A stretch of 34,278 nt of DNA, from IMG/VR virus record IMGVR_UViG_3300030328_003943, positions 1 through 34,278 of that record, one strand, 5' to 3'. The notes beneath the pieces were generated by a model that was given only the letters and a program-made list of their open reading frames with translations, made no database searches and was not told the origin of the DNA. Shown one piece after another: positions 31,243 to 33,769 of this stretch (position 1 is the stretch's first letter; the number at the start of each line of letters is the position of its first letter). The stretch is from a virus. The translations under genes and the position numbers were made by a program.

Positions 31243-31641
31243 TTATCTTGTAGCTTCTAGTATAAATGTAAATGCTTGAGTTGGTAAATCTAATCCTATT
31301 ATATTAAAATAAACAGTAACATTAAACTCATTTCTATCTATCTGAGGATCTACCTCTACTATTAAACTATCTACTCTTGGTTCAAAGTTAGTAATTGCAA
31401 TTTCAATTTGCTTTTCAATTACAGATGCAGTACCAATATCTACCAAATCAAAAAGACTAGATCTAACATCAGAACCTAAAATAGAATTAAAAAATCTTTC
31501 TTTTGGTATAGTTTGTACTATATTTCTTACAGATTTTGCGATTGCATTCGCATCTTTTATTACTGTAAGGTCTTTTGTAATAGGATGAGCATTAAAGGAT
31601 AGACTAATATCTTTAAATGATCTAGATATCCTTGTTTTCAT
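31243..31641 (-). CDS. 25: Baseplate wedge protein gp25
   Basis: Small wedge protein of the conserved gp25/lysozyme-like family found in contractile tails, phage baseplates and type VI secretion (TssE); it links the wedge core to the sheath. It has 132 residues, the same as T4. The family hallmark is the segment ITNFEPRVDSLIVEV (about residues 82-97), with the EPR motif intact. Upstream of it IPKERFFNSILGSDVRSSLFDL corresponds to the T4 region RPFDPEFGCDLSDQLFEN (core residues ERFFNSILGSDVRSSLFDL). It is the first gene after a TATAAATA late box (27 bp before the ATG) and is followed 1 bp later by gp6. In T4, gene 25 lies in another cluster, so the 25-6-7-8 arrangement differs from T4. Confidence 0.93.
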   Translation of the reverse strand: MKTRISRSFKDISLSFNAHPITKDLTVIKDANAIAKSVRNIVQTIPKERFFNSILGSDVRSSLFDLVDIGTASVIEKQIEIAITNFEPRVDSLIVEVDPQIDRNEFNVTVYFNIIGLDLPTQAFTFILEATR

Positions 31642-31667: not shown

Positions 31668-31675
31668 TATTTATA
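31668..31675 (-). promoter_or_regulatory. T4-type late promoter box upstream of gp25
   Basis: Exact TATAAATA on the minus strand (context CTG-TATAAATA-AATC), 27-34 bp before the gp25 ATG and about 30 bp after the terminator that closes the upstream small genes. It would drive the gp25-gp6-gp7 transcript. Placement directly after a terminator marks a clean boundary between the accessory and structural regions. Confidence 0.8.
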
Positions 31676-31706: not shown

Positions 31707-31730
31707 AAAAAAGCGTCCCTTTCGAGACGC
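31707..31730 (-). terminator. Rho-independent terminator after the 49-aa gene
   Basis: Minus-strand hairpin GCGTCTC-GAAA-GGGACGC (7 bp with one G-T pair, closed by a GNRA-type GAAA loop) followed by TTTTTT. It begins 6 bp after the stop codon of the 49-aa gene. It should end transcripts coming from the glycosyltransferase promoter before the late operon begins. Confidence 0.9.
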
Positions 31731-31736
31731 TCACGA

Positions 31737-31886
31737 CTATTTTCCTTGTCCTCTATATCTTTTACGAGACGAGTTACGGGATGTTGCCGAGTATTTCGAG
31801 TGTTTCCCGTTTCCCTGACGAGATTTCTTCGGCGGTGATTGAATAAAATCTCCACCACTAATACCACTTTTTGCTCTTACTGCCAT
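31737..31886 (-). CDS. 49-residue highly basic small protein
   Basis: A short gene starting MAVRAKSGISGGDFI and ending KRYRGQGK. It has a strong ribosome site (AAGGAGG four bases before the ATG) and a terminator immediately after the stop. The composition is Lys/Arg/Ser/Gly-rich with almost no acidic residues, so the product is probably disordered and could bind nucleic acid or the virion. I recall near-identical tiny proteins in T4-like marine cyanophages, always unannotated. The start codon lies inside the end of the upstream 58-aa gene (10-bp overlap), suggesting translational coupling. Another frame across this region is also open but lacks this ribosome site and runs into the terminator, so it is a shadow. 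Confidence 0.85.
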   Translation of the reverse strand: MAVRAKSGISGGDFIQSPPKKSRQGNGKHSKYSATSRNSSRKRYRGQGK

Positions 31887-32053
31887 TGATCCTCCTTAAT
31901 AACTTCAGTTGTAATACTATCTGGATGTGGTGTCCCTGTTTGATAGAATTCTATTGATAAGTCTTCTAGTCTATTGAAATACTCTAATTCCGATAGACTA
32001 GAATACACTAACTTGCCATCTATTAGAATATTATATGACTCTAGTTTTCTCAT
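31877..32053 (-). CDS. 58-residue small protein of unknown function
   Basis: A short protein (MRKLESYNILIDGKL ... EDLSIEFYQTGTPHP). Its ATG overlaps the end of the glycosyltransferase-like gene by 23 bp; an in-frame TAG lies two codons upstream, so this ATG is the only good start. Its own end contains the ribosome site of the 49-aa gene. It is acidic and soluble, with no membrane segment. The N-terminal pattern (aromatic-x-I-x-I-x-(G/N)-K ... L-S/T-E-x-E-F/Y-F) resembles the first half of the 55-56-aa protein encoded about 0.9 kb upstream, so the two may be distant paralogues. Function unknown; tight overlap on both sides supports it being a real gene. Confidence 0.75.
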   Translation of the reverse strand: MRKLESYNILIDGKLVYSSLSELEYFNRLEDLSIEFYQTGTPHPDSITTEVIKEDQWQ

Positions 32054-32786
32054 GTCCTACACGTACCCGTGGATCGCACCATATTTCGTAACCTGCTTCC
32101 TTTGCATCAAGACAGAAAGAAACATCTTCACCGCACATGTCTTGTACTTCGCCTGACTCGAAAACTTGCATCTTCGGTGCAAACCAAGGATACTTCATTT
32201 CTTCGTTCTCAAAGACTCCTTTCTTAATTAAAAGCCAACCGAAACCTGTATAATCTACTGTAAAAGGTTTGCGACGTTTGGATATACTTTCGACAGTTTC
32301 GTGATTCATCACTCCACCATTACCACGAAAATCATCCTCATCTAACCAATGTGCTACAGAAGTAGTCTTACCATCTTCGGTTGCATACCATCCTGCTGCA
32401 ATATCTTTATCCATCAATACAATTTGCCAAAACTTCTCTGTATTGAATACAATATCACTATCAATCCATAATTGATAATCATATGTTAATTTACCATCCC
32501 AAGGTAATTGATCTGGTCCCCTTAAAACATTTGCTCCAAGACACTTACATCTTGCAAAATTCACCATAGAAGAATAATCTTGTGAAATTTGTATACTTGC
32601 TCCTGCTTGTACAAGATCAAAACATAGCTGAACAAATGCCTTTAAGTAAACATATGAAACCCCTCTACCAGGTAAACAGAATACTACTGATTTTCCTTTT
32701 ACTAATTCCTTTGCTTTATCATAATCCCAATCAGGACTTTTATTTGCTGTAGGAGGTTTTGCTTTTACTGTAAATCCTTTAGCCAT
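32031..32786 (-). CDS. Glycosyltransferase-like protein (GT-A fold)
   Basis: A 251-residue probable nucleotide-sugar-dependent glycosyltransferase. Features of the GT-A/GT2-like fold: an N-terminal beta-alpha unit with VVFCLPGRGVSY (residues about 33-44), a DxD-type metal/nucleotide site in LWIDSDIVF (about 103-111), a YTGFGWLLIKKGVFE segment, and the acceptor-side motif CGEDVSFCLDAKEAGYEIW (about 217-236) followed by DPRVRVGHEKT. The GEDVSFC element is the equivalent of the ED-type catalytic motif. No membrane anchor. It is preceded by a perfect-consensus sigma70 promoter, so it is probably expressed early, unlike the neighbouring structural genes. It could modify phage DNA, virion glycans or host surface polysaccharide; the sequence does not tell which. 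Confidence 0.78.
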   Translation of the reverse strand: MAKGFTVKAKPPTANKSPDWDYDKAKELVKGKSVVFCLPGRGVSYVYLKAFVQLCFDLVQAGASIQISQDYSSMVNFARCKCLGANVLRGPDQLPWDGKLTYDYQLWIDSDIVFNTEKFWQIVLMDKDIAAGWYATEDGKTTSVAHWLDEDDFRGNGGVMNHETVESISKRRKPFTVDYTGFGWLLIKKGVFENEEMKYPWFAPKMQVFESGEVQDMCGEDVSFCLDAKEAGYEIWCDPRVRVGHEKTRVI

Positions 32787-32808: not shown

Positions 32809-32837
32809 ATTATATCAGTTTATATATCATATGTCAA
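32809..32837 (-). promoter_or_regulatory. Perfect-consensus sigma70 promoter upstream of the glycosyltransferase gene
   Basis: Minus strand TTGACA (32837-32832), a 17-bp spacer, then TATAAT (32814-32809): an exact match to the vegetative bacterial promoter in sequence and spacing. The -35 box overlaps the stop region of the upstream small gene. The transcript would begin near 32802, about 15 bp before the ATG at 32786. It should be read by host RNA polymerase with no phage factor. Confidence 0.85.
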
Positions 32838-33004
32838 TATGATGCATCGACCATCTCAGGTTCGCTTAACTTTTCATACGTTAAATCTTCTGTAAAATAC
32901 GACTTATATATCCGTCTCCATATAATATTAAACTCCCATTCAGTTAAATCTTTGAACAAACAGTTGTTCTGTAAGTATATGTGATAAGTTGGATTAGTCA
33001 TCAT
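32834..33004 (-). CDS. Small protein of unknown function (56 aa)
   Basis: A short protein beginning MMTNPTYHIYLQNN and ending EPEMVDASY. A longer reading exists from a TTG at 33022, but the tandem ATGs at 33004/33001 overlap the stop of the upstream AbrB-like gene and give a start I recognise from small marine-phage proteins, so 33004 (or 33001) is preferred. It shares the pattern aromatic-H/N-I-x-(L/I) ... (F/Y)-xx-L-(T/S)-E-x-E-F with the 58-aa protein located after the glycosyltransferase gene. The stop lies within the -35 region of the next promoter. No domain with a known function is visible. Confidence 0.7.
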   Translation of the reverse strand: MMTNPTYHIYLQNNCLFKDLTEWEFNIIWRRIYKSYFTEDLTYEKLSEPEMVDASY

Positions 33005-33170
33005 CTTTTTGTGTAATAACAATTTCGCTACCGTCTAATGTAAGTTCTATTTCAGATCCTTCATACCATCCAAAATCATTGACGACCCATTCGGGCAATT
33101 CCACATAATAATGATTTGTTATAGAATCGACCTGTATGGTCTCAAAAATTTTCCCAGAATTTTTCTTCAT
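32994..33170 (-). CDS. AbrB/MazE-like small protein (58 aa)
   Basis: A 58-residue protein (MKKNSGKIFETIQV ... ITQKDDD) not previously delimited by a long reading frame. The core YVELPEWVVNDFGWYEGSEIELTLDG, in parts YVELPEWVVNDFGW and EGSEIELTLDGSEIVI, has the swapped-hairpin AbrB/MazE/SpoVT layout: a beta strand with LP, a short helix ending in a bulky aromatic, a GxxI/V turn, and two final strands. Such proteins act as dimeric DNA-binding regulators or antitoxins. AGGA lies about 11 bases before the ATG. No toxin-like partner is adjacent; the next gene overlaps it by 11 bp and is unlike known toxins. A phage transcriptional regulator is the simplest reading, at moderate certainty. Confidence 0.7.
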   Translation of the reverse strand: MKKNSGKIFETIQVDSITNHYYVELPEWVVNDFGWYEGSEIELTLDGSEIVITQKDDD

Positions 33171-33280: not shown

Positions 33281-33305
33281 AAACAACCCCCCGATCAACG
33301 GGGGG
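33281..33305 (-). terminator. Strong GC-rich terminator after the 150-aa gene
   Basis: Minus-strand hairpin CCCCCCG-TTGAT-CGGGGGG (7 bp, all G-C) followed by TTGTTTT. It begins 11 bp after the stop codon of the 150-aa gene, so that gene's transcript should end here and the genes to the left must have their own promoter. Confidence 0.85.
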
Positions 33306-33316
33306 GACTGTCTGAT

Positions 33317-33769
33317 TCACGAACGAATGGCAGTGAATCTCTCATTATCAATTGACTGTAATGCCATGAGTAATCCGTTTGCATAATCCTTCAAACCCTT
33401 AGCATCCTTTACTTGATTGTCTAATGCTCTACATGCTTGGGCGGCAATGTCGATTGCATTATCCGTATGGCGTTCAGAGAATAATCTAAACTCTTTGAGA
33501 ATAGCGGGGCGGTTGCCAGCGTGACGGACATAAGCGGCGGCGAGTGCATCATACTCTTCTGCTAACCATGTTCTTTCAGATGCACGAACGGCACGAACAG
33601 TGGTTTCAATCGCAGTTTCTAAGATTGTCCTACCACGCTTATAGAATCTTCTTTCCTCACGGTCTGCTAAGTGTAAGAGTCCGAACGCTTCAACGTTCCA
33701 TTTTTGGGATTGATAGAATTCCACTGCCTCAATATCAGCAGTTGAAATGTTAGAGAGATTTGCTTGCAT
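33317..33769 (-). CDS. Unknown soluble protein (150 aa)
   Basis: A 150-residue protein that I do not recognise. It is nearly all alpha-helical and rich in Ala, Arg and Glu (LADREERRFYKRG, AEEYDALAAAYVRHAG, IDIAAQACRALDNQ), with no membrane segment, signal peptide or cysteine pattern. Base composition is clearly more GC-rich than the structural genes to the left. It is bounded on the right by a hairpin and a TATAAT sequence about 20-30 bp before the ATG, and on the left by a strong terminator, so it is probably a single-gene transcription unit. The ATG at 33769 has no evident ribosome-binding site. A host-takeover or accessory role is a guess from position. Confidence 0.75.
   Translation of the reverse strand: MQANLSNISTADIEAVEFYQSQKWNVEAFGLLHLADREERRFYKRGRTILETAIETTVRAVRASERTWLAEEYDALAAAYVRHAGNRPAILKEFRLFSERHTDNAIDIAAQACRALDNQVKDAKGLKDYANGLLMALQSIDNERFTAIRS

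What the first reader, a model, noticed from the sequence alone, without database searches (positions are those of the whole stretch)
32809..32837. Perfect sigma70 promoter in front of a glycosyltransferase-like gene
TTGACA-17-TATAAT is an exact consensus, rare even in host genomes, immediately upstream of the glycosyltransferase-like gene and the two tiny genes after it; the transcript is closed by the GAAA-loop terminator at 31707-31730. This small early-type unit lies next to the late structural operon. It implies strong expression right after infection, before virion assembly, which favours a target such as DNA or host envelope over virion decoration.
Basis: partly seen in the sequence, partly recalled or inferred. 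Interest (0 to 1): 0.6.

Follow-up and report, generated by a model that had tools for sequence, protein, structure and literature searches.

The report
Conserved early promoter before cyanophage glycosyltransferase
A marine virus of cyanobacteria carries a textbook-perfect early promoter in front of a sugar-transferring enzyme gene, and the same promoter sits at the same spot in nearly all relatives with the gene, so it is real and probably switches the enzyme on early, though what the enzyme decorates is unknown.

Summary
TTGACA-17-TATAAT lies on the minus strand at 32837-32809, 22 nt before the ATG of the gene at 32031-32786. It is the only exact match in the window (0.05 expected). The window is a fragment of a T4-like marine cyanophage. 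In related loci a sigma70-like promoter stands at nearly the same place (89 of 96). Exact copies are not rare in these phages: 2-9 per record, all on one strand. The GAAA-loop terminator is real, but only 18 of 93 loci have a terminator there. New here: the promoter spacer carries a second conserved motif (TANATAA, 67 of 89 loci, 0.6 expected), almost private to this gene. The protein is a GT-A-fold glycosyltransferase (phrog_1574, T4-GC 102), far more conserved than gp25 (88% against 64%). Its closest solved folds are protein-modifying enzymes, and six of seven gene-bearing records lack a thymidylate-synthase-fold gene. Early timing therefore fits; DNA as target does not. The acceptor and the actual transcription time are unproven.

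The parts
32809..32837 (-). sigma70-type promoter: -35 TTGACA 32837-32832, 17-nt spacer, -10 TATAAT 32814-32809, TG extended
   Evidence: conserved in 89 of 96 loci
32819..32826 (-). conserved spacer element TATATAAA (family consensus TANATAAT) inside the promoter
   Evidence: TANATA at this position in 67 of 89 loci against 0.59 expected; composite promoter nearly confined to this gene
32031..32786 (-). GT-A-fold glycosyltransferase, 251 aa, phrog_1574 / T4-GC 102 (P-SSM2 PSSM2_106); DxD D109-S-D111, E220-D221, H245 conserved
31877..32053 (-). tiny gene, 58 aa, phrog_3252, overlaps the end of the glycosyltransferase gene
   Evidence: found in 85 of 97 loci
31737..31886 (-). tiny basic gene, 49 aa, phrog_516, present in 399 cyanophage records
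31711..31732 (-). intrinsic terminator, GC-rich stem with GAAA loop and T run
   Evidence: terminators at this place in 18 of 93 loci against 0.2 in shuffles
31668..31675 (-). T4-type late promoter TATAAATA of the gp25 operon, marking the far border of the unit
   Evidence: sequence; motif 34 nt before gp25 ATG; 83 of 87 loci
31243..31641 (-). gp25 baseplate wedge gene, first gene of the late structural operon (context)
32994..33170 (-). AbrB/MazE-like small protein gene upstream of the promoter, conserved neighbour (context)
   Evidence: weak Pfam MazE hit, phrog_661; 79 of 97 loci

Best explanation
This is a genuine promoter for host RNA polymerase with its main sigma factor, placed before a short early (or early-to-middle) operon: glycosyltransferase, phrog_3252, phrog_516, then a terminator. 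The operon is the last sigma70-type unit before the gp55-dependent late baseplate operon, which has its own TATAAATA promoter. The enzyme is a probably metal-dependent GT-A glycosyltransferase made early in infection. Shown: the promoter, its conservation, the absence of a late promoter, the late promoter of the neighbour, and the predicted GT-A fold with conserved DxD, ED and His. Inferred: early timing, catalytic activity, and an acceptor that is more likely a protein or a conserved cell glycoconjugate than DNA. The spacer motif is probably a binding site that adjusts this one promoter; its binder is unknown.
For: Exact match, 0.05 expected. Sigma70-like promoter in 89 of 96 orthologous loci, mostly 22-24 nt before the ATG, while sequence further upstream is not conserved. 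TTGACA-17-TATRAT is a one-strand class in seven phage records, 37 hits against 0 in the reversed control. Late motif before gp25 in 83 of 87 loci, before the glycosyltransferase in 2 of 96. In P-SSM2 the orthologous promoter is the last strong sense-strand site before the 73-121 kb structural block, which has none. Overlapping or near-abutting genes support one transcript. Structure model pLDDT 88, pTM 0.84; PDB matches are GT-A glycosyltransferases: LH3, Mnn9, COLGALT1, GalNAc-Ts. Literature: cyanophages lack Alt/ModA/ModB, so early genes are thought to use host sigma70, and late genes use NATAAATA (PMC2984593).
Against: No transcript data for this gene could be read; the P-SSM2 and Syn9 transcriptome papers are not held. 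Sigma70-like sites also stand before gp32 and psbA in P-SSM2, so the class is not purely early. In phages without the glycosyltransferase, phrog_516 sits inside the structural cluster, so that gene need not be early. GT-A fold similarity is broad (10-13% identity, TM about 0.5-0.6) and does not fix donor or acceptor.
Confidence: 0.75

Rival explanations
1. The glycosyltransferase is a DNA-modifying enzyme that sugars hydroxylated bases of the phage genome, as in T4, and early expression serves that.
For: Early-type promoter; unusually strong protein conservation, as expected for an invariant target.
Against: No thymidylate-synthase-fold gene in six of seven records with the gene (S-TIM5 has one) and no Tet/JBP oxygenase above cut-off. 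Fold is GT-A, closest to protein and mannan glycosyltransferases. 2OG-Fe(II) oxygenase genes were found near in only 12 of 97 loci.
Confidence: 0.07
2. The enzyme alters the host envelope (LPS or other surface glycan) early in infection, for example to block a second phage.
For: Early-type promoter; weak best matches of single members to polysaccharide glycosyltransferases HpsE/HpsN and rhamnosyltransferase.
Against: Host surface glycans vary between strains, yet this protein is 84-90% identical across the close loci.
Confidence: 0.3
3. The enzyme O-glycosylates a protein, host or virion, in the manner of hydroxylysine or Ser/Thr glycosyltransferases; made early, it may act on virion parts later.
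For: Closest solved folds are LH3, COLGALT1 and GalNAc-Ts, besides the mannosyltransferase Mnn9; the archaeal viral GT-A protein A197 of STIV is the best PDB profile hit, E 0.017, and may glycosylate the capsid protein (PMC10551542). 2OG-Fe(II) oxygenases flank the gene in P-SSM2.
Against: Oxygenase neighbours found in only 12 of 97 loci; fold similarity across GT-A enzymes is not specific.
Confidence: 0.35
4. The promoter match is a chance product of an AT-rich genome.
For: With one mismatch allowed, 1.3 matches per window are expected by chance.
Against: Exact match expected 0.05; position conserved in 89 of 96 loci against non-conserved flanks.
Confidence: 0.01

Closest known systems
Early sigma70-type promoters of T4-like cyanophages (S-PM2, Syn9; PMC2984593)
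   Same: Host-like -35/-10 boxes, no MotA or Alt system, one-strand distribution
   Different: This one has an added conserved spacer motif TANATAAT, and its -10 is mostly TATGAT in relatives; the motif is nearly confined to this gene
T4-type gp55 late promoters (NATAAATA) of cyanophages
   Same: The spacer motif NATAAT(A) resembles NATAAATA
   Different: One A short of the late motif; true NATAAATA present before this gene in only 2 of 96 loci, against 83 of 87 for gp25
phrog_1574 / T4-GC 102 (P-SSM2 PSSM2_106; annotated glycosyltransferase in Sf-CH5)
   Same: Same family, 84-90% identity across close loci
   Different: No difference of kind; this is a further member
LH3 (PLOD3) and COLGALT1 hydroxylysine glycosyltransferases
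   Same: GT-A fold by Foldseek, E about 1e-8
   Different: 10-12% identity; no fused hydroxylase domain; acceptor unknown
STIV A197 viral GT-A glycosyltransferase
   Same: Viral, small, single GT-A domain; weak profile match E 0.017
   Different: Archaeal virus; match is short (55 positions) and marginal

Membership tests
Sigma70-type promoter | -35 TTGACA, 16-18 nt spacer, -10 TATAAT | tested here: met
   12 of 12 with 17 nt
Sigma70-type promoter | conserved position before the gene in relatives | tested here: met
   89 of 96 loci, mostly 22-24 nt before ATG
Cyanophage early gene | no late promoter NATAAATA upstream | tested here: met
   2 of 96 loci have one
Cyanophage early gene | transcript appears early in infection | not testable with these tools
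   P-SSM2 and Syn9 transcriptome papers not held
phrog_1574 | profile match over nearly the whole protein | tested here: met
   E 2.1e-121, residues 20-251 of 251
GT-A glycosyltransferase | GT-A (Rossmann-like nucleotide-sugar) fold | tested here: met
   model pLDDT 88; 90 PDB matches at E up to 0.001, the listed ones glycosyltransferases
GT-A glycosyltransferase | DxD metal-binding motif and C-terminal metal-ligand His | tested here: met
   D109, D111, E220, D221, H245 invariant in 35 sequences; spatial clustering not checked
GT-A glycosyltransferase | sugar transfer activity | not testable with these tools
   needs an assay
Known Pfam glycosyltransferase family | match above gathering score | tested here: not met
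   window protein none; best of 35 members E 0.024 Galactosyl_T
T4-type DNA glucosylation system | dCMP/dUMP hydroxymethylase (PF00303 fold) in the genome | tested here: not met
   absent in 6 of 7 records with the gene; present only in S-TIM5
JBP/TET-type base modification system | Tet_JBP oxygenase in the genome | tested here: not met
   0 of 7 above cut-off
PLOD/collagen glycosyltransferase | linked 2OG-Fe(II) lysyl hydroxylase | tested here: inconclusive
   2OG oxygenases found within the fetched flanks in 12 of 97 loci only

The most novel reading that the evidence does not exclude
A gene-private composite promoter, in which a sigma70 promoter carries an extra factor-binding element in its spacer, drives an early host-takeover glycosyltransferase that sugars a conserved host protein such as RNA polymerase or a translation factor, filling the role that ADP-ribosyltransferases Alt and ModA play in T4 and that cyanophages lack.
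Probability: 0.08. Interest if true: 0.85.

Novelty: new member of a known kind. Interest (0 to 1): 0.38.

Why it matters
It gives a clean, testable early/late boundary in one of the most abundant ocean virus groups. It also singles out a strikingly conserved, mostly unannotated enzyme (88% identity where its neighbour gp25 has 64%) and a promoter element shared by most relatives, so one 5'-end map and one glycoproteomics experiment in P-SSM2 could assign a function to a whole family.

Tried and rejected
DNA glucosylation: rejected as the leading idea for lack of a thymidylate-synthase-fold gene and of Tet/JBP. A fixed hydroxylase-glycosyltransferase pair, suggested by P-SSM2 and the LH3 fold hit: oxygenase neighbours in only 12 of 97 loci. 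The spacer motif as a gp55 late promoter: true NATAAATA in 2 of 96 loci. Control by the AbrB-like neighbour: the motif is common with and without an adjacent abrB gene, 48 of 59 with it and 19 of 30 without, so no clear link. The spacer motif as a general middle promoter: the stricter form occurs five times in 14 records, at most once per record, so it is not a class. Phmmer of the single protein against PDB gave only inositol phosphatase noise. Literature on PSSM2_106: none found.

Full report
What the window is. The 34,278-base window is a viral record of 31% GC. Its genes are terminase small subunit, tail sheath stabilizer, neck proteins, gp8, a 4,461-aa gp7-like baseplate protein, gp6 and gp25, in the order of the structural cluster of Prochlorococcus phage P-SSM2. 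It is a fragment of a T4-like marine cyanophage (Kyanoviridae).

Observation. The sequence TTGACATATGATATATAAACTGATATAAT lies at 32837..32809 on the minus strand. It is the only exact TTGACA-17-TATAAT in the window, with 0.05 expected in dinucleotide shuffles. With one mismatch allowed, chance would give 1.3, so the exactness and the conservation matter. The -10 is preceded by TG at the extended position.

Conservation. I collected 80 loci from viral contigs, 9 from binned genomes and several phage records. A promoter with a 17-nt spacer scoring at least 10 of 12 (TATGAT allowed as -10) stands before the gene in 89 of 96 loci; 51 have exactly 22 nt and 18 have 23 nt between the -10 and the ATG. 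The common form in relatives is TTGAC(A/T)-17-TATGAT; the window has the full consensus. Bases further upstream carry little information, so this is not mere relatedness. In most loci the leader is short, and only 10 of 96 have an SD-like motif.

Promoter class. In seven phage records TTGACA-17-TATRAT occurs 37 times, 2-9 per record, within each record all on one strand, against none for the reversed control. In P-SSM2 the exact sites stand before gp32, an endonuclease V gene, two genes of the small-ORF region at 57-70 kb, and psbA. The exact consensus is thus a usual form of a promoter class in these phages, not a rarity. Published work holds that cyanophages lack Alt, ModA and ModB, that early genes are thought to be read by host polymerase with sigma70, and late genes from NATAAATA (PMC2984593).

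Early/late border. The next core gene downstream, gp25, has NATAAATA within 80 nt in 83 of 87 loci (5.3 in shuffles). The glycosyltransferase has it in 2 of 96. In the window the late motif TATAAATA is at 31675..31668. In P-SSM2 no strong sense-strand sigma70 site lies in the structural block from 73 to 121 kb, and the site before the glycosyltransferase is the last one before it.

The unit. The glycosyltransferase gene overlaps or nearly touches phrog_3252 (found in 85 of 97 loci), which overlaps or nearly touches phrog_516 (92 of 97) in most loci. In the window a GAAA-loop terminator follows. A hairpin with T run follows phrog_516 in 18 of 93 loci, against 0.2 in shuffles, so the closed unit is found in a minority and in others transcription may run on. 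In phages without the glycosyltransferase (S-RIM2, S-RIM8, P-RSM4, S-RSM4), phrog_516 sits within the structural cluster before gp25, after a PAAR or uncharacterised gene. It is a broader cyanophage gene (399 records, against 103 for the glycosyltransferase) and need not be early everywhere.

A second element. In 67 of 89 loci the spacer carries TANATA at a fixed place, with 0.59 expected from shuffled spacers; the consensus is TANATAAT followed by G just before the -10. The window has TATATAAA. Across 14 phage records the composite pattern occurs ten times, all but one at this gene, and a stricter form five times, once in each of five records. It resembles a late promoter or a second -10 but is neither by the tests made. 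Its binder is unknown; the conserved AbrB-like neighbour (79 of 97 loci) is a candidate without clear statistical support.

The protein. It belongs to phrog_1574 (E 2e-121), T4-GC 102 in P-SSM2, and is annotated as glycosyltransferase in some records. No Pfam family matches it above threshold. An alignment of 35 members has invariant D109, D111, E220, D221 and H245. The model has pLDDT 88 and pTM 0.84. Foldseek against PDB gives GT-A enzymes: LH3, Mnn9, COLGALT1, GalNAc-Ts, and mimivirus R699, at 10-13% identity and TM near 0.5-0.6. The profile's best PDB sequence hit is STIV A197, a viral GT-A protein (E 0.017), whose suggested substrate is the capsid protein (PMC10551542).

Conservation of the enzyme. 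Its median identity to the window is 88%, against 64% for gp25, 60% for phrog_516 and 50% for phrog_3252 in the same loci; it exceeds gp25 in 79 of 79. The loci were chosen for similarity in the glycosyltransferase (the best 80 of more than 600), which inflates this contrast. It still suggests a target that does not vary between hosts, which speaks mildly against strain-specific surface glycans.

Target. For DNA: six of seven records with the gene lack a PF00303 gene and none has Tet_JBP above cut-off; the fold is GT-A. I rank protein first, envelope or other glycoconjugate second, DNA last. Early synthesis does not exclude a virion protein.

Limits. Loci are related and not independent; counts describe conservation, not independent events. 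Timing, activity, donor and acceptor are inferred. The key transcriptome papers could not be read.

Noticed in passing
31737-31886 (-); L082 near 6895: phrog_516, a 49-aa basic protein gene found in 399 cyanophage records, usually shortly before gp25; it is not annotated in P-SSM2 (gap between PSSM2_107 and PSSM2_108).
   Followed up: partly
32994-33170 (-): Small AbrB/MazE-like protein gene upstream of the promoter, kept in 79 of 97 loci at about 46% identity.
   Followed up: partly
32819-32826 (-) and relatives: Spacer motif TANATAAT, plus a frequent GTAA or GTAATTAC near the expected transcription start; possible operator of unknown binder.
   Followed up: partly
33287-33305 (-): A second strong terminator-like hairpin (CCCCCCGTTGATCGGGGGG) separates the gene at 33317-33769 from the AbrB-like gene.
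   Followed up: no
L095 3827-4426: A distant phrog_1574 member in a virus assigned to Methanobacteriales, one gene away from a tail protein.
   Followed up: no
L016, L029, L035, L083, L097 and others, about 1 kb after the glycosyltransferase start: A conserved protein annotated as ferredoxin/purM or transcriptional regulator lies between the unit and gp25 in 36 of 97 loci but the two examples tested have no Pfam match; the annotation looks unreliable.
   Followed up: no
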